Positions 481-33,300 of a stretch of 64,000 nucleotides of DNA are shown in pieces. The notes beneath the pieces are model-generated. The model worked only from the letters and a program-made list of their open reading frames with translations, did no database searches and had not been told where the DNA came from. Each line of letters opens with the position of its first letter. Positions within the stretch are counted from its first letter, which is position 1. This DNA is from Owenia fusiformis (lineage: Eukaryota; Annelida; Polychaeta; Sabellida; Oweniidae). The stretch covers positions 38,467,936 through 38,531,935 of the forward strand of contig CAIIXF020000006.1 in the NCBI GenBank assembly GCA_903813345.2, given 5' to 3'. The translations under genes were made by a program, and so were the position numbers.

Positions 481-3400
481 GAGAAGACAGTCGGGGAAAC
501 ATATTCAATGAGGTTGGGAATGACACACCACTCGGTCCCGGAGGAGAAACCCCAGCAAGAACCCCAGAAGTTGATTCACCTCATAAGTTACAAAATTCCC
601 GTTCAGGGTCTCCAGCTTATGACGTAGAAACTGGAGATGGAGAGCGGAATCCAGAGCCACCTCCTGAACTGGCAAAATCGATGGATCTATTAAATGCAGA
701 TAATATAGGGGGCACTGTGTTCAGTAAACATTGGGTATTCAGTACATTGATGAAACTCATACAGGTAAGTTACAGATTTGGGGAGAGTTGGGGTGTATTG
801 GGTGCTCAGAAATTTTAGAAGAAATCGCTGGGAAAATAACATCATATAATTCAGTTCTTTGCTTTATGAAAATGAAATGATCATGGACCTGAAATCTCTT
901 ACATCACACACTGCTTTTTGGGAGAAAATGTAAAATGGCATCGCCCTTTTGGTAAAAGTGTCTGACTCTAAAAGTACAATTTTATTTACTTGGTAGAAAG
1001 CAACATGTCATCAAAATCAATATTATATTCACATTGGGACTCCTCACATTTTCTCCTTTCCAATGGTGTATTCAAATCTTATATCCTAGTGCAGTTTGTT
1101 GAACTTCGTGATGTTTTATTGAAGTTTTGCATTTTTAAGATATTTTCCTTCAGATCTCTCAGCTTCAAACAATGTTTTCTATCTGTACTTTAGGAAGTTG
1201 AAAAGGATGTTGAATCTAAAGATCCTGATGAAATCAGAGAGGTGAACGAAGATCTCCAGGATGAGCTCTGTAAACTATGGGACATTGCAATGGACAAGGT
1301 ACATTACTGTATACAGTGAAACCTGTATATATATCTGAACTGTATCAAATGACTTACAATTGTTACAACTCTCGCAACTTAATGACATTGTGATATTTCC
1401 CAAAGAAAGTTTGTGTCAATCATTATTGATGTTCTATTGTTTCTTATCATTTTGATTTTTTGGAGCATTTCAGGAACAAGTTTAAAAACATGATTAATTT
1501 CGATTTTCAGGATGTTGCTGCATTTCTTCAAGAATTCCAGGCTGTAGAGATTCTCACTGGAGTTATCGCCAAATCTCATGCCCCTAGACTCACAGTAAGT
1601 AGGAATACTTATGTCACCCCCCTGCCCCCCAAGAAGTGGTGACACCGTTATAGCCATTGTTTTTTTGGTCCACAGTTCATTTCTGCTAATATAATTGCAC
1701 ATTCGTAACATTATTTGGTTGCTTTACGTGAAGCATCATTTTTGGTTTTTCTAGAAGGATTAGGCGAAAGAATAATAAGTTAACTACAGGAAAAAACTTT
1801 GTTTTTTAATTATAACTATAAAATTCATATTTTTCTCAAAATCTATGTTATTTCTGGAATCCCAATTTGTTTTCCTTAAAAGTCACATTTTTGAATATTG
1901 TAAAATATTTTCTACCTTTTGTTACTAGAGTACAATGGACCACATTAACAATAAGTCAGTATTCATAAGGTATTAATATGTCATCACCACTAGTGGTGAC
2001 ATATTGTTTTAGTGTGTAGTGTCCCAACTTTTATGTGAATGATGTTTGGCATTTAGCCGTTGGTGTTTGAGAGTCAGTGTTTGGCATTTTGGTGTTTGGT
2101 GACATTTTTAATGTAAATGCGTTGTTTTAAATGGAATGAATGGATTCTCTGAGTGTAATATTGTTTGGCACCTCATTTTTCAGGAAATCTCCATTGGCAT
2201 TCTGGGCAATATGGCATGCCATAAACAGATCTGTCCCGTCATCACTGAAAACAACGAACTTGTGTGAGTCTGTTTCATTTATTCCATCGCTTAATTCAGA
2301 TATTACCCAGGCTAGTGAGGATAATTCTGAGATATGTTGGAGGATATAAGGCATTCAAAATATTTGTGATTTTTAAAAATCAGTGCAATAGATGAGATGC
2401 GAGTAGAAATAATCTCGATTTGCATCATAAAATATTCAAATTTCAGTCAAGTGATATCATATTTGAATATATAATTACATATTCGATGTAAAGTAGATAA
2501 TCAAATTCATGTGCTTATTCCTCTTGGTAAAACTAGGCTTAATAATGAACGATGCCAGTTTTCAGTATTTTTCTCTACTTTATTTCAGGAAGTTGACCCT
2601 ACTGCTGTTGGAAACGCCCGATGCTCCTACTCTTATACAAATCACCAGGTAAAAGAACTTTGCAATTTATAGATTTAAAGTAAGTAAAATTCTTCTGATC
2701 AAATATCTGTTCTTAACCATTCCAAAATTGTTCCGTTCCAAAGCCAAATGTTTTTAACCAAACCATTCTGATTTTTTGTTCCATGACACCCCTACTTAAA
2801 ACACAACTGAATAAAAAACATCTTAATTGAAAAAGCACTAATACTCACACTATATTCACTCTTTACACCTGTAGGTTGCTGTATGTTTGTCTCAGTAGTG
2901 AGGGGAGCAAATGTTCTTGGATACCAGCTATCAAACAACACGAGACAGTGCTTCAGAACATACTGTTTGTCTTCAACAGTTCAACCAACAGTAAGTTGGA
3001 GTGAACTACTCAGTCGAAGTCCCCCCCCCCCCCTTAAAAGCAAAAGAACATGGCCATTTTCAATGTTTTCAAGATGCCTCTAGCCAGTTTTCATCTTGAG
3101 GTTTAAACTTTAAGGAGGTAGATATTCTTTTACAACAACTAGCCAACAGTAAAACTTTTGTCCAAAAATGAATTTAATTAACACGTCTTATTACATGTAT
3201 GTGGAATTTCTTAAGCTTTTCTATTTACTTGAAAACTTAAAAAATGGGAAAATATCTACTGGTCTTAATATTGAAGAATTTTATTTGTATTGTAGATGAC
3301 TTGCTGAAGAACATGGGAGAATTAGTGGATAAATTACTAGAGATGGATGAAGAAATCTGTACCCAATGGGCCACTGTACAATTTGTCCAGTCGCTGCATG

Positions 3401-6400
3401 AGGCTATTAAGCAGATTGGGTAAGACATTTTAACATGATGGTCTAAATCTGTACCCAATGGGCCACTGTACATTTTGTCCAGTCACTGCATGAGACTATT
3501 AAGCAGATTGGGTAAGACATTTTAACATGATGGCCTAAATCTGTACCCAATGGGCCACTGTACAATTTGTCCAGTCACTGCATGAGTCTATTAAGCAGAT
3601 TGGGTAAGACATTTTTACATGGTGGTCTAAATCTGTACCCAATGGGCCACTGTACAATTTGTCAAGTCATTGCATGAGACTATTAAGCAGATTGGGTAAG
3701 ACATTTTAACATGGTGGTCTAAATCTGTACCCAATGGGCCACTGTATAATTTGTCCAGTCACTGCATGAGGCTATTAAGCAGATTGGGTAAGACATTTTA
3801 ACATGATGGTCTAAATCTGTACCCAATGGGCCACTGTACAATTTGTTCAGTCGCTGCATGAGACTATTAAGCAGATTGGGTAAGACATTTTAACACGATG
3901 GTCTAAATCTGTACCCAATGGACCACTGTACAATTTGTCCAGTCACTGCATGAGGCTATTAAGCAAATTGGGTAAGACATTTTAACATGATGGTCTAAAT
4001 CTGTACCCAATGGGCCACTGTACAATTTGTCCAGTGACTGCATGAGGCTATTAAGCAGATTGGGTAAGACATTTTAACATGATGGTCTAAATCTGTACCT
4101 AATGGGCCACTGTACAATTTTTCCAGTCACTGCATCAGGCTATTAAGCAAATTGGGTAAGACATTTTAACATGATGGTCTAAATCTTTACCCAATGGGCC
4201 ACTGTACAATTTGTCCAGTCACTGCATGAGACTATAAGCAGATGGGGTAAGACATTTTTACATGATGGTCTAAATATATACCCAATGGGCCACTGTACCA
4301 TTTGTCCAGTCACTGCATGAGACTATAAGCAGATTGGGTAAGACATTTTTACATGATGGTCTAAATATATACCCAATGGGCCACTGTACAATTTGTCCAG
4401 TCACTGCATGAGACTATAAGCAGATTGGGTAAGACATTTTTACATGATGGTCTAAATATGTACCCAATGGGCCACTGTACCATTTGTCCAGTCACTGCAT
4501 GAGACTATAAGCAGATTGGGTAAGACATTTTAACATGATGGTCTAACTTGATTGACTATAAGGCTGGGGTAAACAAATGAATTTATTTAACAGGTGTAAC
4601 CAGGCAGTGTGGGCCATATCCACTTGACAGTAGCCCCAGGCGCATGTAAATATTTAGAGTCGAGTGTAAAATTGAATTGCCTTGCCTGGGACATTGTCGA
4701 ACATGAAAAACATAAAATTTGCCATTGTTGAACAATTATAGAACAAAGTCAATTTTAGTTCTAACTTTTTTCATAAACATATTCAACTCTTCTTTTTAAA
4801 GATTTTTATTAACAAGAAAACTGTGGGTATACATATCATCAGTGGCAACACTTTGGCGAGTGTAATCTTTCATTGGCGAGTGTGAAAACACAAGTCGATT
4901 GCCACTTGGCGAGTGACAGAAAAATCTTAAGACCCTCACTGCCAGGGGGTGCAATTGCTTACTAAGTTCCTGCATTAGATTAATTCTTGTACAACTGTGT
5001 CTTATGTTCAGTAATTCAATGTGCTGCATGTACATGTACAATCGTATTACCATATATTTAATATGTACAATACTGTTATATCATGTACAATAATAATTTA
5101 ATATGTACAATACTGTTATATTATGTACAATAATAATTTAATATGTACAATACTGTTATATTATGTACAATAATAATTTAATATGTACAATGCTTTATAT
5201 TTACAATTTTGTCACATATTCTAGTTTTGATATGTTACAGAGAGAGACCAGGGGAGATCATTGGCACATATTTCCATATATGTCAACTTCTGTCGACTAC
5301 TGAAGTGGGTGTACAGGCTTTAGGTAAGTTTCTACTAATTTCTACTATGTAATGTTCAAAATGACAAATAAATTGATAAAATGTTTTCTTTAGTGGGATA
5401 TGAGGTTTTTCAGATTGATATTTTTCAAAAATTTCATACATCTCAAAACTTCAAATAATTTAGGCAATTAAGGGTGGTCTCAGTATATGTTAAGTCCCCG
5501 TCACCTGGGCAGTCAAATTGAAAACAATTGATGACTTTCCTAAAGGAAATCCAGTATGTTTTCTAACCAATTTCGAAAGTTTTTTTGTCATCACAACGAT
5601 TGGTTGTCATAGTCATAGTTGACAATTGGCATCTGTAACAAATGGTAGGTGTTGACATTTTGCATGTTAATGCCTTGTATTTTAATGTTTGTAGTATCAG
5701 ACGTGGACAACATCGGCTCTTCCCTTCTGCTATACTTGGACCATACATGTAATGATGACACCATTAAAGTCATTGGGGAGGAGAATGTACTTGCATCTGC
5801 AATTTGTGTACTTAATTCATTCTACATGTCAGCAGGGAGGAACTCAGTTGTCAGAGACCAAGGTATTTTCACAATTATTGACTTGTATAGGGAGTATAAC
5901 GTCTAAACATACACAGGGGCTTGATGCATAGTTATCTTGGATTATTTAAAGAGAAACAGTAGAACCTGTGTAAAGTAGATGCCCTTGGGACCATTAAAAG
6001 TGTTCCACTTGCGAGGTGTTCCACTAATAGAGGTTCATTAACATTGAGTCAATATGTCGCAGGACTTTTGAAAACCTGTTAAACTTATGATGTGTGCCAC
6101 TTATATATAGGTGTTCCACTTACACATAGGTGTTCCACTTATGTGGGTGTTCCACTTACATATAGATGTTCCACTTGTGAGGTGTTCCACTAACATATAG
6201 GTGTTCAACTTGTGAGGTTTTCCACTTACACATATGTGTTCCACTTGTGAGGTGTTCCACTTACATAGGATTCCAGTTTCTACTGTGCTTATCAAGGTGC
6301 TTTTAGCTTTTTTGACAATATAATTGAACATCTGTTTGACATACCGTTGTGAACATGTACCGCCATGAAACCCGTGTTTCCATGACAACCAGTAGAGTAA

Positions 6401-7403
6401 CAGTAAAAAGGAGGCAATTGAGGCTATTGGTTTAATGATAACAAACTTTTGTGGAAACAACTTCCATTAATAAATTGAAAGGTTTTATCTATTTTCTGAA
6501 TCAGAAGAAAGGAGGAAAGAAAGAAAATTCATGATTAATTGAATTGATTAACAGGATTGTGGCATTTTATTTAAATTATTCAGTTATATAATATTCTTGA
6601 TTTCAGAAAAGCAGCTTACAAGAAACTTACTGAAGATCCTAGAAGTGGTCAGTTGTATATTGAATGACAGTCAGTTGAATACAAATCCAACCAACCAATC
6701 AAATCAAGGAACTCCTCATTCAAATAAACTTGAAAACACAGACGGTAGAAATAAGAAATCAACGGAAATCTCTAATTTGTCAACGACCTCTGACAGTACC
6801 TCAAATACGCATAAACTAGAAAACGGCTCAAATCCATCAAAAGCTACTGACTCGCCAATCTCAAATACTGAAGCTTGTAAAAGTAGTCCCTTATCAAAAA
6901 GAAATACGCCTGGATCTAGTGGAGTTACGCCAACTTCGGATGCTGGGTCTAGCCAAGGATTCTCAGAATGTTCTACACTGTTATATAATACAGTCCAAGG
7001 TTTCCTGGTGGATATTCTGCAGTCCATACCACAGGTAGGTAGTATAAAATGTAAATACAACAATACAAATACATGTATATTTGATTTAGATTGATTAAGG
7101 CATGATTGACAAACAAATATTGATAGATATCAATTTTGATAAAGAAATTTTTAAATTTACAAAGATCCCCAGTTTATTATATAACAGTATTTTTTTTTTC
7201 AGGCTTCACAAGATCATACCCCAGACTTCCTAGATTACATGAACAGGTACTGTCCCAGTGAGAGACTACAATGCCTGTTGACGACCTTAAAACACATGGA
7301 GAACCGAGATCTTATCCAGACCTTATTACAACACTCACGGAATTATCAGTGTGAACATTTTACAAAAGGATTAGAAGACTTTATTAAAAGCACAAATTCA
7401 TGA
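481..7403 (+). CDS. SAAL1: SAAL1-like armadillo-type protein, 11 exons seen, 5' end missing
   Basis: Exons 481-764, 1194-1298, 1511-1594, 2184-2263, 2589-2648, 2875-2990, 3296-3419, 5241-5323, 5695-5862, 6607-7034 and 7203-7403 join in one frame and give about 576 residues before TGA. The first exon starts inside a codon, so the initiator lies upstream; none was found in 1-480. Recognised as SAAL1 (serum amyloid A-like 1) from conserved stretches such as GGTVFSKHWVF, DVAAFLQEF, GILGNMACHKQIC and the SSTN-DLL-GE-VDKL segment, all in the vertebrate order. The fold is expected to be armadillo-like helical. Vertebrate SAAL1 is linked to cell proliferation, but its biochemical role is poorly known. 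The protein is longer than the roughly 470-residue human form because exon 10 carries a linker of about 100 residues rich in Ser, Thr and Asn. Intron 7 begins in a minisatellite that copies the end of exon 7. Confidence 0.9.
1977..2112 (-). repeat. Dispersed element, CACCACTTGTGGTGACA family, copy 1
   Basis: In SAAL1 intron 3. It begins with a CACCACTAGTGGTGACA palindrome and continues into GTTTGGCATTT/GGTGTTTGG units. The same arrangement recurs about ten times in the window (see 9350, 17600, 33890, 35174, 37996 and 40716), so it is a dispersed non-coding element. Confidence 0.6.
3353..4546 (+). repeat. 92-bp minisatellite spanning the SAAL1 exon 7 splice donor
   Basis: About 13 head-to-tail units with a 92-bp period. 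Unit starts can be followed at 3361, 3453, 3545, 3637, 3729, 3821 and so on. The first unit is the last ~67 bases of exon 7 plus its donor and the first ~25 intron bases. Every later unit repeats the exon end (encoding CTQWATVQFVQSL...AIKQIG), the GGGTAAGACA donor and the intron tail. Some later units lose one base in ACTATTAAGC, which would shift the frame. The array therefore holds a dozen extra near-consensus donors. Confidence 0.9.
5052..5195 (+). repeat. 40-bp AT-rich tandem repeat in SAAL1 intron 7
   Basis: The unit ATATGTACAATACTGTTATA followed by TTATGTACAATAATAATTTA repeats at 5061, 5101, 5141 and partly 5181, giving a 40-bp period. It lies about 50 bases before the acceptor of exon 8 at 5241. 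Confidence 0.8.
5590..5685 (-). repeat. CACCACTTGTGGTGACA-family fragment abutting a SAAL1 acceptor
   Basis: The segment containing TGGCATCTGTAACAAATGG and GTTGACATTTTGCATGTTAA matches the terminal part of the dispersed element seen at 9350-9478 and elsewhere. It ends only about 20-25 bases before the acceptor of exon 9 (exon start 5695), so it lies where the branch point and upstream polypyrimidine region would be. Confidence 0.6.
5945..6290 (+). repeat. GTGTTCCACTT tandem/dispersed repeat
   Basis: In SAAL1 intron 9. The motif GGTGTTCCACTTA(C/T) recurs about ten times with 20-25 bp spacing. It is the complement of the GTGGAACACCT motif found at 39683-39880, 42370-42515, 42960-43075 and the start of the 25.0-kb minisatellite, so it belongs to one dispersed family. 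Confidence 0.7.
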
Positions 7404-7438
7404 TGAGGTCTTGGAAATTTCTAGAGGGATTTTTTATA

Positions 7439-7444
7439 AATAAA
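7439..7444 (+). promoter_or_regulatory. Candidate poly(A) signal of SAAL1
   Basis: AATAAA lies 36 bases after the SAAL1 stop codon. This would give a very short 3' UTR. No better candidate was chosen further downstream. Confidence 0.4.
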
Positions 7445-8042
7445 CCAAATCATTGAAGAGGTTAGCAGCTAGATTTACAAAAATAATCAGAATCTTTTTT
7501 TGGTCATATCTTTCTTGTCATTGGTTTTCCCAAAGTAATTTCCTCAAGGTCAAGGTCAGTATTTCAATACACACCCACAGATGCAGTAATTATAGGGGAA
7601 GGGGTGAGCTTGTTAAATTTTGAAAGCTCACGTCAGTTTATAAAGGAAACAGCTTTTGATTTAAAAAAGTCAATTAATGTTCAAGTATTTAATTTAGAAA
7701 GGAGAGAGGAATTATGATTTGGATATTGTCTCAAAAATGTTAGCATGTTAATATTAGGATGTTTTAACATGTTGCATATTCAATATAATGTTATTGTAGC
7801 ATGAAAAGAGCACATGCTACATAAATGGATGAATAGATGGCAGTACTGTACATACTGTACATTACATATAGTATTTTTTTATAGAGAAACTGACAAAAGT
7901 TACTTAATTTTCCAATTTAGCAAATATATTGAATTGGTTCGAATTTATAGAACTCGATTGGCGTGCACGTACATGTAGATGATCTTGGTGACTCGCAGAT
8001 TGTGGTATGCAAGACTTTTTAGACTGCCACTAATGCGATCAT

Positions 8043-8172
8043 GCCCGTAGCCAGCTTTTACCAGGAGGGGGAGCTTTTTTACAATTTTGGCTAAAAATTA
8101 TGCAAAAAATTCTCAGAATGGTGAAAAACTGCATGATTTTGAAAGAATTTCTGGCCAGGGGGAGCTACGGGC
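8043..8172. mobile_element. MITE-like element with GCCCGTAGCCAG ends, copy 1
   Basis: Starts GCCCGTAGCCAGCTTTTACC and ends GGAGCTACGGGC, giving inverted termini of about 10-15 bp around a spacer containing CTCAGAATGGTGAAAAACTG. Five related copies occur at 15841, 36892, 39371, 41873 and 50001. There is no coding capacity. Confidence 0.7.
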
Positions 8173-8177
8173 TATAC

Positions 8178-8345
8178 TGTTCTGACCTCCAAAACTTGGT
8201 TCCTTCCACCCAAACCTTGGTTCTCAAAATCCAAATATTGATTCTTCATTCCCAAATCACAATTTCTTCTCTCCTGAACATATTTCTCTGTGTTGTGAAA
8301 GTTTTGGTTTGGGTGGAAGGAACATAGTTTGTGAGGTCATAACTG
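8178..8345. repeat. 168-bp inverted repeat
   Basis: The left arm contains TGACCTCCAAAACTTGG and TTCCTTCCACCCAAACC. The right arm contains the complement GGTTTGGGTGGAAGGAA followed by GTGAGGTCATAAC. It is a small palindromic element directly after the previous one. Confidence 0.65.
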
Positions 8346-9349: not shown

Positions 9350-9478
9350 GTCACACACCACAAGTGGTGACAAATTATTGTAGTCTCCAACTTTTTGTGG
9401 ATGGTAGTTGGTGGATGATGGTCGCTGTCTGGCATCTGTAACAAATGGCACGTGGTGACATTTTGCTTGTTAATGGCT
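9350..9478 (-). repeat. CACCACTTGTGGTGACA-family element, copy near the GPCR 3' end
   Basis: Contains CACCACAAGTGGTGACA, then CTTTTTGTGGATGG, CATCTGTAACAAATGGCA and GTGACATTTTGC in the family order. It lies about 70 bases beyond the GPCR poly(A) signal. Confidence 0.65.
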
Positions 9479-9549
9479 TGGCAATACCTGGAGAACCCTT
9501 TGGAATACAAATTGAAAAATAACACAATAATATAAATTATGGAACAATA

Positions 9550-9583: not shown

Positions 9584-10648
9584 TCAATTTGCTGGTTTAC
9601 ACAGCAGAATTCTCTTCAATTCTCTTCTAAATGTTTTCCCAAAGAGGAAATAAAATATAAAATTACAGGATGAATTACAAACAGTCAAAAAGTTTGCTAC
9701 TATAATTGTTAAGTATTTTAGATGATTTGGAATGTAAATGGAATTTGAGCCAAAATGGCCAATGTATACAAGTGTTAAAGCTATGAGATACGAAAGAGAG
9801 TACAACATGAATACAGATACAATAGCTATCATTGTTAAAGTTTGTTTCCTGTCCTCTGCTGCAGCTTCACTCAATTGTTGAACATTCTGCCTTGATTGTC
9901 TGACAGACTGGATCAGTTTATAGTTTAGTACTGAAATTGTGATCAGTGGCCCAGCGTAAATCAAGATGATGTTAAAAATGTCATGTGTTGGTATATCGGA
10001 GTACGTGTAAGTGAACGAAAATCCAAATTTTGTACTGACAAATATAATGGATGAAATTGTCAAAAGTCCCACTGCTATTCTCATACGTTTAATGGTAGCA
10101 ATCCTTGTAGCTTCAAGTGGTTTTGCAATGTGAATATATCGGTCAACTGTTACCAAGACAACCATCCATATTGACAGTGTCCAAGTGGTGTCGGTAAACA
10201 AATATTTAGCTCTGTGGTAATTGATGCTCACACTGAGATTCAAGTCAAAAGCAAAGTTTAAATGCACTGGCAATCTAAATATAGTATAACAAGTCAAATA
10301 TAGTAAGTCTGTCACTGCTAGTGCTTTAAGCAAAAATACACGTGTGCTTTTTGTTGTGTCTTTTGATAGAACTATCAGTGCTAAAATGTTTCCAATCAAT
10401 CCAAATAAAGTCGCAATTATTTGTAGTGTGTATATCACAATGTGAAAGTACCAAGAGCGTGTCACATAGTCAATGTATTCTAGGTAATATGGTAGCTGGC
10501 TCTCGTTTGCTTTGATACTGTTGTTCAGATGAGTATCATTGTAGTCCAGTAGCCCTGTAGAGTTCAAATGTACATTGTTCAGACTTGCATTGCTGAAGCT
10601 TGCATTAGTCAGACTTGCATTGTCCAGACTTGCTTTATATTGATACAT
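9584..10648 (-). CDS. Intronless rhodopsin-like GPCR, neuropeptide-receptor type
   Basis: One open frame of 354 residues starting at the ATG at 10648; the frame runs five codons further upstream but has no ATG there. Seven hydrophobic segments are visible. Family marks: GLIGN in TM1, KALAVTDLLYL in TM2, VTVDRY at the end of TM3, a Pro in TM5 (YAGPL), and NSSCNFIFYFLFGK in place of NPxxY in TM7, followed by an Arg/Lys-rich helix 8. The NSS-NF-Y-LFGK pattern resembles invertebrate FMRFamide-receptor-like proteins; the ligand is unknown. The N-terminus holds about seven N-glycosylation sequons, several in a short SL-NA repeat encoded by a 15-base tandem repeat. Unusual: His at the usual TM3 Cys position, no Cys in the second extracellular loop, and Ser instead of the TM6 Pro. 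It probably signals at the plasma membrane through a G protein. Confidence 0.88.
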   Translation of the reverse strand: MYQYKASLDNASLTNASFSNASLNNVHLNSTGLLDYNDTHLNNSIKANESQLPYYLEYIDYVTRSWYFHIVIYTLQIIATLFGLIGNILALIVLSKDTTKSTRVFLLKALAVTDLLYLTCYTIFRLPVHLNFAFDLNLSVSINYHRAKYLFTDTTWTLSIWMVVLVTVDRYIHIAKPLEATRIATIKRMRIAVGLLTISSIIFVSTKFGFSFTYTYSDIPTHDIFNIILIYAGPLITISVLNYKLIQSVRQSRQNVQQLSEAAAEDRKQTLTMIAIVSVFMLYSLSYLIALTLVYIGHFGSNSIYIPNHLKYLTIIVANFLTVCNSSCNFIFYFLFGKTFRRELKRILLCKPAN

Positions 10649-18300: not shown

Positions 18301-21300
18301 TTTCAATTGCTTCGTTGAGAAGTATTTTGACAAAAGGCTTCGTAATGAACAATTTTGTACCCATGTTACACCACATGATTCCTTCAGCATGAAGTTATGG
18401 CAAGATTAAAACATTTAAAGGGACAACAAAGAGTATGGCATAAGTCGCTTCAATATTCTGTGATTTTCGACAAAGATTTGTAATGCAGCAATTAAATCAA
18501 AAATTCTCACCCTTTTGCTCTCTGGCCACTTTACGAACATCTTCCCTGAATGTGGCAAATGACTGGAGGTATGGCATAACTGTCTCTTCAATATTCTGTG
18601 ATTTGGCCCCTCCTTGCGGAAATCCAATTGGTTCATCCACTTGTATTGCACCAAATACCTACAAGGCAAGATTAAAACAATTAAAGGGACAAAAAAGACT
18701 ATGGCATAACAGTTTCTTCAAAATTCTGTGATTTGGCCCCTCCTTGTGGAAATCCAATTGGTTCATCCCCTTGTATTGCACCAAATACCTACAAGGCAAG
18801 ATTAAAACAATTAAAGGGACAAAAAAGACTATGGCATAACAGTTTCTTCAAAATTCTGTGATTTGGCCCCTCCTTGTGGAAATCCAATTGGTTCATCCCC
18901 TTGTATTGCACCAAATACCTACAAGGCAAGATTTTTTTTATCAAGAGATTTTATAACCATTAATCATTAAAAGTACATATCATACATGAGGGACCCAATC
19001 GCCAGTGGCATTATAGGTGTCCCTCAATGTAGTAATTGCAATTTGTAAACATGGTTTATACACAATTATATAGGCTATTAGAAGAAAAATAAAAAAGAAA
19101 ACATCTGCATTTTAATTGGAGTGTGGGGGGCTGCTGTCTCTGCCTATAGGGTCCTGGAAACAACTCATACAAGGCAAGATTAAAACAATTAAAGGGACAA
19201 AAAAGACTATGGCAAAACAGTTTCTTCAAAATTCTGTGATTTGGCCCCTCCTTGTGGAAATCCTATTGGTTCATCCCCTTGTATTACACCAAATACCTAC
19301 AAGACAAGATTAAAACATTTAAAGGGAGAACAAAGACTATGGCATAACTGTCTCTTCAATATTCTGTGTTTTGGCCCCTCCTTGTGGAAATCCTTTTTTA
19401 GATTTTTCTTGTCATATGATTTTCTTATCGCAATTAAAAAGTGCTTCAATGTTGTGCTGAGCTGACAGACATGTGGGGTCAACAATAAATCGCCACCAAA
19501 ATAGCGTGCAATCTCTTTACTGTATTCAAAATTGCTATTAGAACATTAGTATTTTTGGGCATTTACGTGCTTGACAGGAGAGAATAAAATATCGCCAAGT
19601 AATTTACCCAGCATGCCCAAAGCCTAATCAGATCCTAGATCTTGTTTTCTCCTGCATCTGTAAAAGTTTGGAAGTTGAACAGGTAATGTTATGCAGTTTT
19701 TCTAGATTTGATGACACGATTTGAGTGGTGCATACCACTGGCGGATCTGTGGGGGGGGGGCACTTATCCACCAGCACAAGATGATGACAATATGCATGTA
19801 TTACTTAGAAAATTGTAGTAATGATATATAGACTCAGCTTAAAAGGCAGCCTAATATTTGGACCCTATATAGTCCAACTTTGAAGCCCTATAAGCGAGTA
19901 GAATTATGAATGGGAGGGTTCACAGAGGGTGCTAGTGAATGAATTATACAAAGTTCAATAGTCGGCCCAAAATAGGAAAGGCAGACAAAGGAAAGTACCA
20001 ACTATTTACCTTCAATATCCTTGTAATATAGATGGCGATGTTTTTCAGAAGTATGCCGTTGGGTGATATCTTGGCCGCTCGTTGTGACGCTATGTAGCTG
20101 TTACTTGAGGTGGTAAGGTCACGCAGACAGTCCATTGCACTTCTTGTATCAATAGAATCTGAAACCACAGGAGTAAAATACATATTTATTTATCATTTGT
20201 AACTTAAAATTGTTAAAGGCCCCATGTGAAGTTAGAAAATATTTTTATTTTATTTATATTTATTTTTGTGATTTAAAAAGTTGTTTAAGACATAAAATCG
20301 GCCTTTTGTTTTTCAAATGTTTCAGTGTTTTTTGTAACTATTTTATTTTTTATTTTTTATTTATCATGTTTTATTTAATACAATAATATATGTTAAAAGG
20401 AAATTTCCAAAAAGGCGACTTGGTTTAACATTATAAGTCGCAGGGTTAATTAACAAAATTTATTAAAAAAACAATCCATTTGGTGAAGCAAATTGGTGAA
20501 TAAATTAAGCATAGAAGGTTTGATAATTGCTGCTAACACTCAGACACTTACACACTTCTGGAGAAAAGAGGCACTAGTTTCAAGAAGTTATGTTTGTAGC
20601 GTAGTTAAATTTTGAGCTGCCAAAAAGAAAGAAATTCAATTTCTCTTGTTGGGTCTTAAAATTCTTTTTATATTGGATTTCAAGGTTATTTAGTTTAATT
20701 TCGAAGTCAGTTAGGAGGGTCCTACGGAGTCTGCAGTTAAAGACGACATGCTTGGATGTTTCACTTTTGAATCCACACTTACATTTTGGTGTATCAGCTA
20801 GAGTAAAGTTGTGGGCATGAAAATGAGATTGAAAAATCAAGTCGACTCGTCCTATTAAGACTGATTTCCTCTGGTCTAGGTAAATGCAATGAGGTAGATG
20901 ATACGATAGGTTCTGGATAAATGAGAAGTGTCAATTTAGATTTGAAAGTACTTAAGTTGTCTATCTCTTGGAGTTTTTGGGGTAGTTTATTCCATTCTGA
21001 GATAGCTGTAAAAATGCATGTTTTCTTTAATATCACAGATCTTTTAGCGGGCAAGAGGAATTCAGTTGGATTTCTCAAATAGAGAGGAGGTTGTTGTCTC
21101 TTATATTTATCAAATATGTTTTGAACATATGAAGGAACTTTCTGATTTTGGACATTGAACATGAGGGTTAGTTTATGAAACTTCCTCCTCGTCTCTAGTT
21201 TAGGCCAATTTAGAATATTGAGCACCTTTTCAGAAGATGACCCATGAATAGTTCCACTACAAATCAGAGCTGCCTTGTAGTAACTATTTGTAAGGTAACT

Positions 21301-24300
21301 AGTCAAATAAGTAATTCTGTAAAAAACACTATTATTTTTTTTCTCTAAATACCAATAGAATGATGAAGTCTTATGTCTAAATGGTATAATTTAATTTTTC
21401 ACACACTCTTTAATTTTATATCACTTTTACACTTTCCCGATGTCATGCTGAAACATTGTGACATTACAATTTTTAAATTATTTATCAGTTATTTCTTTGT
21501 TGTCATAAACCTCATGAAAGTATGATAAACTTTAAAATATTTTTAGTATATCTAGGTCAAGTCATAAGTTTTTAAGTTAAATACATTTATGTGTAACATT
21601 TTGTAACATTAGGTTTTCAATGGGTCAAATTTGTTAAAACTACATAGGCCTTTTACATTATTTCTATTATCTGACCTGATGATTGAAACTGTCAAATATT
21701 ATCTTTAAATCTAATGATTACTTATCATTGTTCCGATGAATTCATGGGAGCATCAAGTTTTCAAAATGCATTTGTAAATACTAAAAATCAGTTTCTTACA
21801 AAGCAAGTGAATTCAGATATTTTACAATTCTAAGAACAAATATTCAATGGTTTAAAAATGGATTGCCTTTGCCCTGATATTCATGTTTCAAACATACATT
21901 CCTATGCACTTTTATTATTTTTTACAATGGTCCTTTATATTATTTTATTATCATTAGTGAAAGTTTTCCATATCGTGCAATTGACCTTGGGATTTCTTCA
22001 CACAAGTAAGAATTATGAACTTAACTACTTGTATTATGCAACTCTCAGACATAAATTGATGCCAAACACTTGGATAAGCTTTCTCACGACTTTAAAAATG
22101 TTGATCTTTCAAAATTCAATTTCACAAAAGTGGTAATAGTAAATACATACAGCCACCGACACCTGGACCATTCAACGTGAATAATAAACATTTGTCCACT
22201 AATGTTAAGTTCAGATTATCTTGCAAGCAGAACAAATATTAGAATATCGCATTACTCGACATCTTTTATTCTGCTTTAGAATGATCACAGACTCCTAAGT
22301 AAGTGTTACAGATTACATATTTGAACGTAAATATAACTTAGCCATGTCTTTTGTGTAATTGCAGGCCCAATATTGATACTATTAGTTAAGAAGATAAGAT
22401 TTCCTCTGGAGCCATTAGATACGTGCAATTTTACATGCTACTTAATTTTAATGAATATTTTGTATTTTTTCTAATTTTATGAATACATAGTATAAGAAAC
22501 AGTTTCGCAAATAGGCATACCACATTAAAATGATAGATATTCCATGGTATACCAATAGCATAAAAAAACACAATGTTTGGTGTCTAAAAGAAAATAATTA
22601 AAACTGCATGAATACACACATTATAAAAAAAGATTAGTAAATATACAATCCATAGAACTAATAAAATAAAACTTATTCTAATGGACGGGTAGGCATAAAA
22701 ACAAAATATTTGATGTAGATATAATTAAATAAAGATAATGACTAGACAACAAGACTGCAAGCAATCCTACAGAGGATGAGGCTCCGTAGGTGTTTGAGGC
22801 TCAAATGCCTCCGTTTGAGGCTCCATAGGTGTTTTTGACAATTTGAATATCAGCCAAAAGTCCAATCTCAAATCTTAAGGTCATATATATTATGAACCCA
22901 AGGCAACTTGTAGATGATGTTTCAAAAAAGATTTGTTCAATTCGAAGCAAGTCAAAATTTGACCTAATAACTGAGGGTGTGAAAGACTATTATTAAGCAC
23001 AAGTATTCAGAATTCAGATTCCTTTGCATTGGCAATATGTTCATCAAATATTTGTTTAACTTAAGTACCCTTTTCAAGGCATGGATTTTTCTCAACTCTT
23101 TTATCATAGCTAGTTCGTCGATCAGCTTATATTCAATAAGAGTATGTGTATTTACATGTACATTTTCTACCAACAAGAAACTGGCATTCATTTAAAGGTT
23201 CAACAAATACTGCAGGGGGGGGACAATCTTAAAAATCTATAAGTGGGAATCCCTTTATAGAAGCTTTGAACTGAATTTACACTTCTTAATGCTGAAATTG
23301 AGCGTTTATCCATACATTTTAAGAAAATAGGTATGTCAAAGAAGATGTTAAGCCAAATATTGACCTGATAGCTTAGAAAAAAGAAAAAAATTCGAATTTT
23401 CTCTCTACAGTCCTTGTTGCCCCTTTAATTTCACAATTTCACCATAATGAACATCATGATCCATCTAAGTATTTCATATGACTGAAGGAATACACTAATT
23501 TATCAGGATGCATCTTGAATGGGATTATTCATTCTGATTCAAACATAATGAAAAAATTGAAGAAAACATTGTTCAAAGAAGGATGTCGATGAAAACAAAC
23601 CAATTTGCTGTCATTCTCGCGCCAGAAAAATTCACTTATCAAACAGCGCCCTAGATGCAGATGCAACATCACAAGACAATGCAGATTCCAGGACGGTCGC
23701 TCGTCGATTGAGAATTATAGAACTGCAATGCTGCAATCTCATTGGATGAGAGACTCTTAAAGAGCATACTGATTGAATTTACATTTTCTGAAAGCAATGC
23801 TTGACGATGCATCAAAACAGTAAAATCCTCTGTACAGTATTACTTAGAGGGTAGAGTGGATAGCTGCTGGAGATAAAGGGTAATAGTCAAATCTGCAGAA
23901 CTGAAAAGGCGCTTGAGATCACATCACCATTTAGCACAGGACACTAAATCAACATAAAAAACAAACATTCTCACACTTAAATTGGTTACCTTGAAATAAC
24001 TGTTGCTTCACTGGTTTAAAGCGAGGGTGTGTGAGGAAGCAATATTAATATACATTTCCTGAGATTCAAAAACTTGGAAACCATATTGAAATAAAGATGG
24101 AAAATGAAAACTATGATGCAGCCATATGGAATGGGATTCTGTTTGGAGGGGTAACCATAGCGATCATCATCTGCAGAATCCTGTACAATCACATCACGTC
24201 AAGGCTTCCACCTACATTGCCATGGTTACCGAAAGTTGGAAGCATACCATTTATCAATACGGAGAACCGTTTAGAGATGTTGGTGAATTTGAAGCAAAAG

Positions 24301-27300
24301 TATGGTGATGCGTGTATGATGTACCTAGGAACAAGGCCTGTGGTAATGCTAAATAGCTACCAAGCCATCCAAGAAATCCTGGTTCGAAAAGGAAACCACT
24401 TCAATCATCGTCCATATCTGCTGGGCTTAAATGAGCTTTTAAACAGCAAAGGTTAGTGTTTTTACATATAACATGGGACAAAATTTGATGAGAATGGCTC
24501 GACTTTCAAAAGGAAACTTCAATGATTTAAAATGCCAACAGGTGACGTATGATGTCATTCTTTATTACCACCCAAGTTGAAGTTCAGTCAAAATATTTAA
24601 AGGGAAATTGGAAAACCTGGAAAATCAATTGATAATGATCTGTTGCGTCCAACGGAAGGAGGGCACAAAGTCCTTTTGATTTTACTTCAATAGCATGAAA
24701 TACCTAATTTATCAACAATAATCATCAATTCGACTTTTCCAGATCAAGATTCATTTATCACATCATCCGGATCAACCAATGAGAAAATGCACAGATTCAC
24801 AGATGATGCCCTGGAGGTGCAACTCCACCCTACCACAGGTACATTCCAAAGCAATCTCCAAGAAGAGCTGAAAGTGTTATTCAAGGAGATAGATGCATTG
24901 AAAGGGAAGGCTGTGGACTATGAGGAGCTGCTACTGACTTGCTGTTCGAATGTGATGAATCGGGTCCTTATTGGGAAGAGACTGGAGGTATCAAGTACAG
25001 CCTTCCAGCAACAGTTACAAGGTACGACAGTTAAACCTGCTAAGTGGAACACCTCTGTAGGTAGAACACTATGAAGTGGGATAATTTTCTACCTCTGTAG
25101 GTAGAATCCTTTTAGTGGGATAATTTTCTACCTCTGTAGGTACATGTAGAACACTATTAAGTGGGATAATTTTCTACCTCTGTAGGTAGAACACTATAAA
25201 GTGGGATAATTTTCTACCTCTGTAGGTAGAACACTATAAAGTGGGATAATTTTCTACCTCTGTAGGTAGAACACTATAAAGTAGGATTATATTCTACCTC
25301 AGTAGGTAGAACACTAAGAAGTGGGATAATTTTCTACCTCTGTAGGTAGAACACTATGAAGTGGGATACTATTCTATCTCAGTAGGTAGAACACTATGAA
25401 GTGGGATAATTTTCTACCTCTGTAGGTAGAACACTATGAAGTGGGATAATATTCTACCTCAGTAGGTAGAACACTATGAAGTGGGATAATTTTCTACCTC
25501 TGTAGGTAGAACACTATGAAGTGGGCTAATTTTCTACCTCTGTAGGTAGAACACTATGAAGTGGGATAATTTTCTACCTCTGTAGGTAGAACACTATAAA
25601 GTGGGATAATATTCTACCTCTGTAGGTAGAACACTATTAAGTTGGATAATTTTCTACCTCTGCAGGTAGAACACTATGAAGTGGGATAATTTTCTACCTC
25701 TGTAGGTAGAGCAATATTAAGTGGGATAATTTTCTACCTCTGTAGGTAGAAAACTATTAAGTGGGATAATATTCTACCTCTGTAGGTAGAGCAATATTAA
25801 GTAGGATAATTTTCTACCTCTGTAGGTAGAACACTATTCAGTGGGATAATATTCTACCTCTGTAGGTAGAACACTATTAAGAGGGATAATATTCTACCTC
25901 TGTAGGTAGAACACTATAAAGTGGAATATATTCTACCTCTGTACACCCCCAAAATGCAATCTGATTTTCGACGCCGTTTCGGTGCCAAATTTCGGTGCCG
26001 TCTCGGCACCAAATGGACTGACTAGTCCGGTAGCAAATTTAAGTGTCCAAAGGTTTCGGTGCCGGAACGGTGTCGAAACGGTGACGGAACAGCGCCAAAA
26101 TTTTTTTTTTTTTACAATAATAATTTCATTTAGATACATATTAGGTAGTGAGGTAGCACCGAAAAATGTACCCGAAGATGTACTTGTTTCTTATGTATTT
26201 TTATGTGATACTTCAGAAAAATTTTGTCTGACGCGCCATATCCGGGGCGAAAGTTGTCAAAATTGGGTTTTTGACCCTAAAAAGGAAAATTACAGGGGGT
26301 ACATTAACATCATTGAATAATTCATTCAGTTAGTCTTCAATCATCACAATGATTTTATTGAGAGTTGATGAGATCATTTTAAGGTAGTATGCAAACTTTC
26401 AATGGTCTGTCACTCGTGGTTGCCATGGAAACCACAATTTTTGCTGAGAAAATCCTTAATTTTGGTAAAACCTGTACCTGTACATAATATAGAATGTGGA
26501 TTATTTTTCAAATCAACATATATCAGAACATTTTAGCACTCTAAAAATCACCAGGGCTGTCCAAACATTTGTTTAAAGAGAAATAATATTGCAATTTATA
26601 TGACTGGTAAGTGTCAAAGACCATACAATTACATAAGTGGTCAAAAGTGGGCGTCGCCCTCATAATAGTAGTTGATTGCCATTCTCTATAAATACAGAGT
26701 TTTACTTGACTTTTGAGATACATTTATATTGAATTTCTTTGGTTATACTTAATATCAAGCATTTTTACATCTAAGTGTTATAGTTATTGCATGGGGATAC
26801 AGGGGGAGGGGGGAGGGGGGGGTAGTAACAGAATTGGGAGGGGGCAGAGCTTATCAGCCTTAAGTGTAAATCTCATCTACATGTTTCTAGATTTCATAGG
26901 GTACAGCTTCTGGGTCTTATTATATTCATCTCAATATATAAGATATAAGAATTTACATGGTTGGTAAGTGTCAAAGACCATAGAATTACACATGTGATCA
27001 AAAGTGGGCGTCGCCCTAATCATAGTATATGGTTCATTCTCTATAAATACAGAGTTTAACTTGACTTTTGAAGTACATTTACTTAAAAACATCTTTGATT
27101 TATACTTAATGTCAAGCATTTCTGGTAAGTTATATATGTACATCTAATTGTAATAGTTATTGTCTGGGGGTGGAGGAGGGGGGGGGAGAGTAACAGAATT
27201 GGAAATGGGCAGGGCTAATAAGCCTTAAATGTAAATCTCATTTATTTAGTTCTGGATTTCAAGGGGTGCATCTTCTGGGTCTTCTTCACTTCTGGGTCTT

Positions 27301-30300
27301 CTTCATCTCAATATATGGGATATTCCAATTTACACGATTGGTAATAGACTGCGGACTATTCTGTAGAAGTGCTCTAGAAATGGATCTCGCTTTTCATGGA
27401 AGGTCACACATTCCAACATATTTCAAACAATTTGTATGATTATAATAGACACTTTCTGGGTAGTTGGACTTTATGTAGGGGTGGCAGAAGGCCCTCAGGC
27501 CAATTTATACCCCTACCCCAACAAAACCTTGGGGGTACTTTAATACCACCCAATAAAAATAATACTAATGCATATCAGATATTCATCGTTTTATAGTGGG
27601 TAGGGCATGCCATGGTTAGTCAGTGCCAGAAATTTCCAATCTCTGACTTATATGGTTACCATGGAAACAGTATTTATATCTCACAATCTTCTCAATTTGA
27701 CCCCATCCCAAATGTGTCCTTAAGTTCTCAAAGTGAAATATTTGCAAATCTGTTTGGATTTTGTGATATTAATACTTAAGACTGACTGGCCATTGGCTTT
27801 GCCCCCTCCCATTTCTGCTACTACCCCCCTTGCCCCCCCCCCCACAGGGAATAAATATTACAATACTAAATGTAATCAAAGAAGTTTTAATTTAAAAAAT
27901 AAATCTTAAAGTCAAGTTAAACTCCATGAGAATGAATTATCTACTATTGTTAGAGCAACACCCACTTTTGATCACTTATGTAATTGTATGGTCTTTGACA
28001 CTCCCCAGTTATGTTAATTGCAATATCCTTTATATTTAAATAAATGTTTGAACTGCCCTTGTAATTTTGAAAATGCTAAAATGTTCTGATATCTGTTGAT
28101 TTGAAAAATAATCCACATTCTATATTATGTACAGGTACATGTTTTACCAAAATTAAGGATTTTCTCAGCAAAAATTGTGGTTTCCATGGCAACCACGAGT
28201 GACAGACCATTGAAACTTTGCATACTACCTAAAAATGATCTCATCAACTCTCGATAAAATTATTATGTTGATTGAAGACCAACTGAATGAATTATTCAAT
28301 GATGATAATGTACCCCCTGTAATTTTCCTTTTTAGGGTCAAAAACTCAATTTTGACAACTTTCGCCCCAGATACGGCGCATCAGACAAAAATTTTCTGAA
28401 GTATCACATAAAAATACATAAGAAACAAGTAATTTCAATTTGTTCAGAAGCGGGTACATTTTTCGGTGCTACCTCACTAACTATATACTTGTAAAACCAA
28501 AAAGTAAAACAAAATTAGATTCAAGACTAATAAAATGGCAGTTTACTAATAGTCAAAGTTTCAAACTTACATACCCATAAAATACATAATACAATATAAA
28601 ACAACAGAACTAATACATATGTTATTATAATATCTGCAGCTCACAAAGACAACATCGAAGCACTTTGTAACTCAAAATGCCTGACTGTTGACCCAACTCT
28701 GCGTTTCATCCCTGGGTTCAGGGGGGCGTATGATACACTCAAGTGGGCAGCGGACACAAGACGCAATATCGGGGAAGGACTGATGAATGTGCGAGGCCAG
28801 GGAGGATGGTTGCAGCTCTGTGAGATGAATGCAAACAAACCAAAGGGAGCAGTGTGGTCTGATGATATATCTGGTAAATATTAAACAGGGGTGGGCCTGT
28901 AGTCTGGGAGAGGAATGCAAACAAACCAAAAGGAGCAGTGTGGTCTGATGATATATCTGGTAAATATTAAACAGGGGTGGGCCTGTAGTCTGGGAGAGGA
29001 ATGCAAACAAACCAAAAGGAGCAGTGTGGTCTGATGATATATCTGGTAAATATTAAACAGGGGTGGGCCTGTAGTCTGGGAGAGGAATGCAAATAAACCA
29101 AAAGGAGCAGTGTGGTCTGATGATATATCTGGTAAATATTAAACAGGGGTGGACATGTTGTCAAGGTTTGAAAATATGTGAGGCAAAAATAGAAGAGGCA
29201 AATTTTTATAAGTGGGATGAGAAAAAGAGGATATAATGTTACTAAATTACATCATTTTCAGTTTCAGTTGTCTATTGTTAATTGACATTTTGCAATTAGC
29301 ATTCAAAAGACATAATTATTGAATTTAAAATATATTTTCATGTAATTGATATTTTCATCAGTTCAATGAGGTTTATGTTCACTTTCTGTTGTAACCATCT
29401 TTATTATCTCATTATAAACAAATTACCAATATACAGGGTGGTAATGAAACAATACCACCACCCCCTAACAGCAAAACATATTTAATGATAGATTATGTGT
29501 CATATATCATTTTAAAGAAAATTCAATTTTTTCTAGAGAGTACACTGAAGTTGATGATCCAGGACTGCCATACTGGAGGGACAGAAACTATGGCAAGGAC
29601 CCTAAACACTGCTCTTATGTACATGGCAATCAACCCATCAATACAAAAACAAGTAAGATCATTGACAATATATGTGATACACAACCAAAAAACAAACAAA
29701 ATATGGGGTGATTAACACTAAGCTTAAGTGATGTTGTTCTATTATATTTTGGCTACTCCCATATTTTGGAAATTCTACACATTTTACACTAGAAGACAGA
29801 GCCAGAAAGCCCTTTAGGGGAAGTTCTGTGTTCTTTCATGCGCACTAGTACACATATATACAAGTACACACCATAAACTTTTTGACTTTCCAGCTTTATA
29901 CTGTAAAGTTGAAACTTTAGGACGACTGAAACTTTATTGATCAAGATGGTTCTAAAATATCAAAAATACATTCTCTGTAATTTCAGCTCCAGGATGAGAT
30001 TGACAAAGTAATAGGGGGAGCCACTATCAAGATGGCTGACCAGCAACGGTTGCCGCTTGTTCAAGCCACCATCTTGGAAATCCTCCGCCTGTCTCCAATG
30101 TTGCCTCTGGGAATGCCTCACATGAGCCATCAGGATAACACTGTTGCTGGATATCTCATCCCCAAGGAAACTGTGGTTTTCCCGAATATTTATGCCATTC
30201 ATCATGATGAGGCACTCTGGGAAAATGCTGAGGAGTTTAAACCGCGGAGGTTCTTAGATGCGAATGGAAAGCTGAGTCAGACTGCGAAGAGTAATCTGTT

Positions 30301-33300
30301 AACATTCTCATTAGGTAAACTAATTTTACTGCATATTGGTTATTCTAATGTTAAAAACTGCTATTTTCTTCAATGTTACTGCATATTGGTTATTCTAATG
30401 TTAAAAACTGCTATTTTCTTCAATGTTACTGCATATTGGTTATTCTAATGCTAAAAGCTGCCATTTTCTTCAATGTTACTAGATATTGATTATTTTAATG
30501 CTAAAAACTGCTATTTTCTTCAATGTTACTGCATATTTATTATTCTTATGCTAAAAACTACTATTTTCTTCAATGTTACTGCATATTGGTTATTCTAATG
30601 CTAAAAGCTGCCATTTTCTTCAATGTTACTGCATATTAGTTATTCTAATGCATATGCTTAAAACTGCTATTTTCTTCAATGTTACTGCATATTGGTTATT
30701 CTAATGTTAAAAACTGCTATTTTCTTCAATGTTACTGCATATTGGTTATTCTAATGCTAAAAGCTGCCATTTTCTTCAATGTTACTGCATATTGGTTATT
30801 CTAATGCTAAAAGCTGCCATTTTCTTCAATGTTACTATATATTGGTTATTCTAATGCCAAAAGCTGCCGTTTTCTTCAATGTTACTGCATATAAGTTATT
30901 CTAATGCATATGCTAAAAACTGCCATTTTCTTCAATGTTACTGCATATTGGTTATTCTAATGCTAAAAACTGCTATTTTCTTCAATATTTAATTTGATCA
31001 AAGGTGCAATCTGTCAATTATCTCTTTAAACATATCTTGTTGGCTCAGAGTGATCGACATACATTATGCATGTTTGGTACAACGAAAAAATATAACAAGT
31101 TGCTATAATAAAGTTTAATCACTAAAATGAGGGATTTTCAATAAATATGATTACTGGTCAAATATTAAAAATTTACTTGTCAGTGTGCATAAAGAAGTTT
31201 GTTGATTTGCTATACTAAGTATGAACCACAACATCTGTTGAAAAAATTACAAATGATCTCCCAAAGTTTTTAAAAATCTCATATATTTATTTCCAGGGAA
31301 TCGTAAGTGTCCAGGGGAGCAACTGGCCGATCAGCAGCTGTTCCTAATGATGACATCTTTACTACAACGCTATTATTTCGTGACACAATCTAAAATTGAT
31401 AATTCTCATTTGAAACAAAATATGGGGCTGATGCTTCATGCTCAACCAATCAAATTGTGTGTTAGAGCACGTTAGATAAAAAACTTTCAGCCTTGACGTT
31501 ACTGGGGTAGAGATTCATAGTGTGTGTTTGAGCTTATTAAGTTATGGTGGATAGACATTGGAGTTGAGTGTTAGTACATATTAGATCAAAGAACTTTCAA
31601 GAAATTTTCAAGATGGCTGCTTAATTTCAAAATGGCAGCCATTTTTCATTATCAAACTGATTGTTGTTAGATTAGGCTAGATGTAGGACCTCATCCTTTT
31701 AAATGGACAAACATTCAAGCTGTGTTTAATGCACATAAGATATTTAACGTTTTGTGTAACATATAAATGGACAGTGCTTTTTAGCCTTTATTTGGAGTTT
31801 TTATTTAATTATGTTTAAGGAAGTTAATGATAGTGGTATGATATTCCTTAAAGATTGAACCAAGTATCAAAAATTATGACCGATTTTGTCCTTTCACTGG
31901 TATTGTTTATTGTTGTGACAGCCATTTTGAAATCATAAACTCAAAATGGCAGCCCCCACTAGGCTTCTTTACAAAACTTAAAAAGGTTTCATAACTTATT
32001 TATAACCAAAAATATGAACAAAAATACTTTAAGTAAAAAAAGAAGTCTAGACTGTTAACTCCTTTTAACAGCAAATTTTCGAAAAAGAAGTTAACATATT
32101 TTTGTACTCGTATGTTTGAAATATTAAATAAAATCATAGATGTTATAAAACTAAGCTAAGAATATTTCCTTTATATTTATTTTTACAAAAGCTTGGTTAA
32201 TAGTGAAAATATTAGATCACTACTCAGGTTATGCCTACATGTTATTTTTCTAGACCATATTTCTGAACTTAAAGTGACATTTATAGTGACTTATTGCCTG
32301 TGCTCCTATTGCAGCGCAAACAGTAGCATATAAGCGACCCAGGAGGGGGGGAGGGGGGGGGGGGAGGGGGGAGGAGCTTACAAATGTCTTGATTCAGCTT
32401 TCGGTGCAATTATAACAATGTAACATATGACCTTATTGTGGCCTGGTTGGCTTTATGGCCTGATTTAGCTACCTACAGTATTATCACTAACAAATCACAG
32501 TACATGTGTTAATAAAGTTAATATCCAACTTATCAAGACATACACTCCTCTCTATAGGTTTGACAACTGGAAGTCCCTTTTTGGGTCACTTATCAAAACC
32601 TGTATATGTTTGGCAATTGATAAAATTATCAAATTTGTCATCTATTTACCAACTATTGTTATAAAGGTACATTGATTTTAATGAAAAAAAAGAAAAAATA
32701 TGATTAAATAATTTACAGGCTTTGATATGCTCCCAATAAAGACCCCGGTTGCTAAACTTTATGGAGGGGAGTGTATTCCTCTATTAATTCATGTTTGAAA
32801 AGTGAAAAAATCATCAAACATGTCTGAACTTTTACAAACTTCAAGAGTACATTTCAGATTCCATCACTGATATGCTATCCATTGCCCAGTTCCACTTCCA
32901 GTTGCTAAACTTTATGAAGGGGAGTGTATCTCTATGTAAATTCATGTTTGCAAAGTACATAGTGCTACTTGTCCTAAATACCAGGTACTTGTTCTTTCTT
33001 ATCTGATATATATATATGAAATTCTAACATTAGGCTACAGTAATTAATTTGTAGGTTTAAGGTCCAGTGTAAAGTTTGAATATATGTTTTTATCATTTGA
33101 ATATTAAGTTGTTTTATAAAGATTTATGCATAAAAATTATTTCTTGTTATGAAAATAACAAATAGAGTAATAGTTCCTAGTGCAGCAATATATTAGGAAT
33201 AATATACATTCTTACTGTTCATCGGTAACCCCAAAATTGCTATTTCCTTAGAATATGAGACAAATTCAAAATCTTTCAAAAAAGATGTTCAAAATCCTTT

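What the first reader, a model, noticed from the sequence alone, without database searches (positions are those of the whole stretch)
3353..30990. Tandem repeats are anchored on splice junctions in three separate genes
Six arrays with unrelated units (19, 40, 50, 86, 92 and 130 bp) begin at or span an exon-intron border: SAAL1 intron 7; P450-A introns 2, 3 and 5; P450-B intron 2 (34626); synthetase acceptor (18588-19390). Unit sequences differ, so it is the position that is shared. This points to a mechanism that starts tandem duplication at splice sites, or to selection tolerating repeats there. I recall intron minisatellites at 5' splice sites being described in amphioxus genes; whether this is the same phenomenon is open.
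Basis: partly seen in the sequence, partly recalled or inferred. Interest (0 to 1): 0.85.

Follow-up and report, generated by a model that had tools for sequence, protein, structure and literature searches.

The report
Tandem repeats copying exon-intron borders
Three animal genes in this window carry rows of near-identical copies of one of their own exon-intron borders; this looks like ordinary local DNA duplication that splicing tolerates, of a kind already described in amphioxus, rather than repeats being started at splice sites.

Summary
The arrays are real, but the six are not one phenomenon. I built in-frame exon models of four genes (SAAL1-like, P450-A, P450-B, CARS). Three arrays span a border: SAAL1 intron 7 (92 bp: 67 exon + 25 intron, 13 copies), P450-A intron 3 (86 bp: 57 + 29, 4 copies) and the CARS acceptor at 18658 (130 bp: 89 exon + 41 intron). 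Their 18 extra splice sites keep GT or AG; 16 of 18 score at least as high as the real site. Using one would bring a premature stop. Two arrays start 1 and 7 bp inside an intron, one 29 bp inside. Anchoring is weak statistically: spanning 3 of 11 arrays against 1.1 expected (P=0.09); within 10 bp 5 of 11 against 1.35 (P=0.006), or P=0.04 under another null; all post hoc. Border-spanning arrays are known in amphioxus as 'mirages'. Best reading: random tandem duplication, tolerated because exon definition keeps the exon-proximal site. The host animal is not identified and no genome is held, so the genome-wide test was impossible.

The parts
3296..3419 (+). SAAL1-like exon 7 (of those in the window), which ends at the duplicated donor (..CAGATTGG|gtaagac)
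   Evidence: exon model in frame with its neighbours
3353..4546 (+). 92-bp array, 13 copies, spanning the donor of SAAL1 intron 7: 67 bp exon + 25 bp intron per unit; 12 decoy donors
   Evidence: TRF; copies; donors at 92- or 91-bp steps from 3419 to 4519
28640..28873 (+). P450-A exon 3, which ends at the duplicated donor (..TATATCTG|gtaaat)
   Evidence: model; Pfam p450 hit of the spliced protein
28817..29152 (+). 86-bp array, 3.9 copies, spanning the donor of P450-A intron 3: 57 bp exon + 29 bp intron; decoy donors at 28959, 29045, 29131
18511..18658 (-). CARS exon whose acceptor (cttgccttgtag|GTATTTGG) is duplicated
   Evidence: spliced CARS matches cysteine-tRNA ligases
18570..18933 (-). 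130-bp array, main block of 2.8 copies, spanning the CARS acceptor: 89 bp exon + 41 bp intron; decoy acceptors at 18788 and 18918
19168..19393 (-). outer copies of the same 130-bp array, with a further decoy acceptor at 19296
18399..18466 (-). fragment of the 130-bp unit on the other side of the exon, in the next intron
18934..19167 (-). 234-bp insertion inside the array, flanked by the 14-bp direct repeat AATCTTGCCTTGTA and ending in an A-rich stretch: retroposon-like
34627..34725 (+). 19-bp array starting 1 bp inside P450-B intron 2; its decoys GAG|GTTAAG score 3.3 against 10.0 for the real donor
30322..30986 (+). 50-bp array starting 7 bp inside P450-A intron 5; its GT sites score 2.0 or less against 7.2 for the real donor
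25051..25943 (+). 40-bp array starting 29 bp inside P450-A intron 2; 20 places fit a pyrimidine-rich stretch followed by AG|GTA; a motif at its left edge recurs elsewhere in the window

Best explanation
Three of the six arrays are 'mirage'-type minisatellites. A short local tandem duplication happened to straddle an existing exon-intron border and then gained copies into the intron by slippage or unequal exchange. The exon-proximal copy remains the real border. The other copies are decoy donors or acceptors that should be removed with the intron, because exon definition pairs the nearest acceptor and donor across a normal-sized exon. The other three arrays are ordinary intronic minisatellites lying 1, 7 and 29 bp inside an intron. 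Shown here: anatomy, splice-site scores, reading frames, copy relationships. Inferred: the duplication process, the choice of splice site, and the absence of harm.
For: Units contain exon plus intron sequence in exact continuation of the gene. All 18 decoys keep GT or AG, and 16 of 18 score at least as high as the real site. Seven decoys were translated (SAAL1 first three, P450-A first, CARS all three) and each brings an in-frame stop; in SAAL1 and P450-A the stop lies just past the real donor, so use of any further decoy would include it too. SAAL1 decoys show no coding constraint: stops in copies 5, 8 and 9, a 1-bp deletion in copies 10-13, and 18 of 67 exon-derived against 5 of 25 intron-derived variable columns. 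P450-A and P450-B share all five introns in phase, four of five in the same aligned column, although the array units differ between them, so these introns look older than the arrays. The 92-, 86- and 130-bp units match nothing else in the window beyond their own locus. The same structure is in print for amphioxus.
Against: Five of 11 arrays lie at or within 10 bp of a border, more than the nulls predict (P=0.006 to 0.04); seed units cover 3 of 60 borders (5%) but 1.46% of intron bases; five of the six listed arrays are at or near donors. No transcript data exist here, so use of the proximal site is not shown. Gene models are conceptual; the name SAAL1 found no support in Pfam or PDB.
Confidence: 0.75

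Rival explanations
1. Splice borders, donors above all, are hot spots where tandem duplication starts, for example through R-loops, paused transcription or the AGGT motif.
For: 5 of 11 arrays lie within 10 bp of a border against 1.35 expected; five of the six listed arrays are at or near donors. Intron 2 carries an array near its donor in both P450 paralogues, with unrelated units.
Against: Spanning alone is 3 of 11 against 1.11, P=0.089; the whole-array null gives P=0.28 and 0.038; with all 19 arrays of score 50 or more P=0.51 and 0.19. Borders have strong local copies less often than random intron positions. The units share no sequence, and the SAAL1 intron 7 and P450-A intron 3 donors are not AG|GT.
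Confidence: 0.12
2. The decoy arrays are kept by selection as a splicing control: more decoy sites, more unproductive mRNA.
For: Decoy sites are intact and their use would give premature stops.
Against: Intact sites are expected in young arrays; the SAAL1 decoys vary about as much in exon-derived as in intron-derived columns. No expression data.
Confidence: 0.05
3. The arrays record intron birth by tandem duplication of AG|GT segments (Rogers model).
For: The CARS unit and the 40-bp unit contain AG|GT; tandem duplication is a documented route of intron gain (PMC4974935, passages).
Against: P450-A and P450-B share all five introns in phase; introns 3 and 5 have no such array in P450-B, and intron 2 has unrelated units in the two. 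The SAAL1 and P450-A intron 3 borders are not AG|GT. Not tested for SAAL1 or CARS introns.
Confidence: 0.04
4. Assembly artefact: collapsed or falsely expanded copies.
For: P450-A copies 2 and 3 are identical, and CARS copies c and d agree over 104 bp; one amphioxus mirage was wrongly assembled in the draft.
Against: SAAL1 copies differ from each other by 1 to 10 positions, with a distance gradient; exon copies differ from their nearest decoys by 3 (P450-A) and 5 (CARS) positions.
Confidence: 0.04

Closest known systems
Amphioxus 'mirages' in globin genes BflGb6 and BflGb9 and in Adh3 (PMC3087553, abstract and passages seen)
   Same: [quoted passage not shown] units of 10-72 bp (Adh3) to 150-160 bp (globins); many copies keep AG/GT; inner copies homogenised and cluster edges excluded.
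   Different: There RT-PCR and Adh3 data suggested regular splicing, and length variants were seen, with somatic instability at Adh3. Here neither can be tested and the animal is not identified. SAAL1 has 13 copies; BflGb6 haplotypes had 6 and 3.
Lancelet PGBD5 60-bp and 108-bp repeats, with TnC and Adh cited as further cases (PMC3902484, passages seen)
   Same: Repeats overlap exon ends and splice sites; [quoted passage not shown]
   Different: Copy number differed between two sequence records there; only one record is at hand here.
Human internal tandem repeats at exon-intron boundaries in segmental duplications (PMC2812944, passages seen)
   Same: Minisatellite units at exon-intron boundaries.
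   Different: There the repeats are linked to novel introns and alternative splicing; here the P450 introns look older than their arrays.
[quoted passage not shown] potato RdRp gene, PMC4974935, passages seen)
   Same: Tandem duplication carrying splice signals.
   Different: No new intron is indicated here.

Membership tests
mirage (amphioxus border minisatellite) | Repeat unit spans an exon-intron boundary | tested here: met
   3 of 6 listed arrays; not met by the other 3
mirage (amphioxus border minisatellite) | Occurs at both 5' and 3' splice sites | tested here: met
   two donors, one acceptor
mirage (amphioxus border minisatellite) | Copies carry AG/GT splice signals | tested here: met
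   18 of 18 decoys in the three spanning arrays keep GT (donors) or AG (acceptors)
mirage (amphioxus border minisatellite) | Inner copies homogenised, edge copies excluded | tested here: inconclusive
   fits P450-A and CARS; in SAAL1 the exon copy is only 2 changes from copies 5 and 8
mirage (amphioxus border minisatellite) | mRNA spliced normally despite decoys | not testable with these tools
   no transcript data
mirage (amphioxus border minisatellite) | Allelic or somatic length instability | not testable with these tools
   one sequence only
mirage (amphioxus border minisatellite) | Host is a cephalochordate (the only hosts in the passages seen) | not testable with these tools
   no genome held, organism not named
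intron born by tandem AG|GT duplication | Intron absent from relatives lacking the duplication | tested here: not met
   all five P450 introns shared by both paralogues in phase, four of five in the same aligned column; introns 3 and 5 of P450-B lack the arrays of P450-A; not tested for CARS or SAAL1
dispersed mobile repeat | Copies elsewhere in the sequence | tested here: not met
   92-, 86- and 130-bp units match only at their own locus within the window; a motif at the left edge of the 40-bp array does recur elsewhere

The most novel reading that the evidence does not exclude
In an animal lineage outside amphioxus, exon-intron borders are real hot spots of tandem duplication, so that many genes carry copy-variable arrays of decoy splice sites whose number tunes how much mRNA is spliced productively.
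Probability: 0.08. Interest if true: 0.75.

Novelty: new member of a known kind. Interest (0 to 1): 0.4.

Why it matters
Arrays with up to 12 near-perfect decoy splice sites beside one real site are natural tests of how the spliceosome chooses among equal sites: each predicts that the exon-proximal copy wins. They may also be raw material for new exons and introns. If the host is not a cephalochordate, the mirage phenomenon extends to a further lineage.

Tried and rejected
Rejected: the 50-, 40- and 19-bp arrays as border-spanning (they start 7, 29 and 1 bp inside the intron). My first reading of the CARS acceptor near 18582 was wrong; the in-frame exon runs to 18658 (corrected in entry 2). 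A null that forbids any exon overlap gives P=2.1e-6 within 10 bp for the 11 arrays of score 100 or more; I hold it unfair because three arrays do overlap exons. Allowing exon overlap up to 1,000 bp gives P=0.4 for the same count. A first, approximate seed null with 57 borders gave P=0.090 and 0.0056, close to the final one. Searches for related sequence gave nothing: SAAL1 pieces in viral contigs and genome contigs, a repeat motif in viral contigs. Rfam at gathering scores and ARAGORN found no RNA genes. The word ACATGTACA occurs 6 times against 1.27 expected; I thought of it from memory as a mollusc-like sign and draw nothing from it. Paper searches aimed at molluscs or duplicated donors: one search found no paper; I saw only the listings (15 of 33 and 10 of 23 papers), and no listed title or abstract start was on the point. 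Listings only were seen for all papers except the four named as seen in passages.

Full report
What was checked. TRF lists 43 rows in the window. No genome is held for it. It is DNA of about 35% GC (30 to 42% in 2-kb steps) with intron-containing genes of animal type. I built exon models by reading frame, splice consensus and protein similarity: an 11-exon stretch of a SAAL1-like gene (plus strand), P450-A and P450-B (plus, six exons each), and ten exons of CARS (minus; N-terminal exons not found). Each reads through without internal stops. The spliced P450s match Pfam p450 (E 1.8e-86 and 5.1e-94) and CARS matches tRNA-synt_1e (E 4.8e-69) and solved cysteine-tRNA ligases. The P450 genes lie inside a 20-kb CARS intron.

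Three spanning arrays. SAAL1: the 92-bp unit holds the last 67 bp of exon 7 and the first 25 bp of intron 7; 13 copies give 13 donors, 12 with the identical 9-mer and one with a single change. P450-A intron 3: 57 bp of exon and 29 bp of intron, four donors with identical 9-mers. CARS: on the minus strand the unit is 41 bp of intron and 89 bp of exon; decoy acceptors at 18788, 18918 and 19296 score 12.4, 9.3 and 12.7 against 12.4 for the real one at 18658. Thus 18 of 18 decoys keep GT or AG, and 16 of 18 score at least as high as the real site; the two lower ones are one SAAL1 donor (9.0 against 9.6) and CARS 18918. The scoring matrices come from 28 donors and 29 acceptors of these same models, the real sites included, before the last two CARS exons were added.

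What use of a decoy would do. The first three SAAL1 decoys, the first P450-A decoy and all three CARS decoys were translated, 7 of 18; each brings an in-frame stop. In SAAL1 and P450-A that stop lies just past the real donor, so the remaining decoys would include it as well. The real site is in each case the one next to the body of the exon. Exon definition, which pairs the nearest acceptor and donor across an exon of 124, 234 or 148 bp, would choose it. That is inference; no RNA data are at hand.

The other three arrays. The 19-bp array begins 1 bp inside P450-B intron 2 and its decoys are weak (3.3 against 10.0); the 50-bp array begins 7 bp inside P450-A intron 5 and its GT sites score 2.0 or less; the 40-bp array begins 29 bp inside P450-A intron 2. 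The last has 22 AGGT in 25022-25960, and 20 places fit a pyrimidine stretch followed by AG|GTA. A motif at its left edge, AGTGGAACACCTCTG, occurs 21 times in the window with up to 3 mismatches against 1.2 expected, 20 of them elsewhere. Intron 2 thus has an array in both P450 paralogues, with unrelated units.

Chance. With 60 borders and 11 arrays of score 100 or more: seed-unit null, spanning 3 against 1.11 (P=0.089), within 10 bp 5 against 1.35 (P=0.006), within 35 bp 6 against 1.89 (P=0.005); whole-array null P=0.28, 0.038 and 0.022. With 9 arrays of score 150 or more the seed null gives P=0.066, 0.003 and 0.002, and the whole-array null 0.19, 0.015 and 0.006. With 19 arrays of score 50 or more, placed whole with up to 100 bp exon overlap: P=0.51, 0.19 and 0.23 (57 borders). 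With no exon overlap allowed the same call gives P as low as 5e-7, a null I consider unfair; with overlap up to 1,000 bp it gives P from 0.17 to 0.89. Seed units cover 1.46% of intron bases, 3.47% of exon bases (all of it in the three spanning units) and 3 of 60 borders. Of 57 borders, 3 have a strong local copy within 1.5 kb (score 25 or more; 4 at 20 or more), against 20% of 1,500 random intron positions and 2.3% of 600 exon-interior positions. That scan counts every copy of an expanded array, so it is a count of positions, not of events. The finding was picked because it looked striking, so these P values are generous.

Copy history. SAAL1 copies 10-13 share a 1-bp deletion, and divergence rises with distance between copies (rank correlation 0.36, permutation P=0.007). 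Copies 5, 8 and 9 have stops in the exon-derived frame. The exon copy of SAAL1 is only 2 changes from copies 5 and 8, so it is not set apart from the decoys. P450-A copies 2 and 3 are identical and differ from the exon copy by 3 of 86; the two inner CARS copies agree over 104 bp and differ from the exon copy by 5. P450-A and P450-B (38% identical) share five of five introns in phase and four of five in the same aligned column; at intron 2 the alignment has a gap. Introns 3 and 5 of P450-B lack the arrays of P450-A, so these introns look older than the arrays.

Comparison with print. [quoted passage not shown] PMC3902484 adds PGBD5 and cites TnC. Whether this window is from amphioxus or another animal I could not test.

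Verdict. Three real border-spanning minisatellites of a known kind, and three intronic arrays near donors. A duplication mechanism anchored on splice sites is possible but not shown.

Noticed in passing
18934-19167: A 234-bp insertion splits a CARS array copy right at its decoy acceptor; 14-bp direct repeats and an A-rich end suggest a retroposon. No second copy in the window by blastn.
   Followed up: partly
18399-18466: A fragment of the CARS array, including its unit joint, lies beyond the exon in the next intron, as if copied there by template switching.
   Followed up: partly
24097-38371: Two P450 genes on the plus strand lie inside a 20-kb intron of CARS on the minus strand.
   Followed up: partly
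25051-25943: The 40-bp unit can be read as GT...AG with a pyrimidine tract, about 20 times in a row: resembles a row of recursive splice points.
   Followed up: partly
25051-25943 and 34627-34725: The homologous intron 2 of both P450 paralogues carries an array near its donor, with unrelated units of 40 and 19 bp.
   Followed up: no
10573-10637: 15-bp tandem repeats near the start of a long reading frame that looks GPCR-like by eye encode repeated NAS-type motifs.
   Followed up: no
50746-51324 and 60240-60965: Two related GNAT acetyltransferase reading frames; by eye the first seems to shift frame near its end compared with the second.
   Followed up: no
33880-34110: Dispersed repeat with an internal 28-bp array; pieces match near 40718, 5632, 17304, 2074 and 9381.
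   Followed up: no
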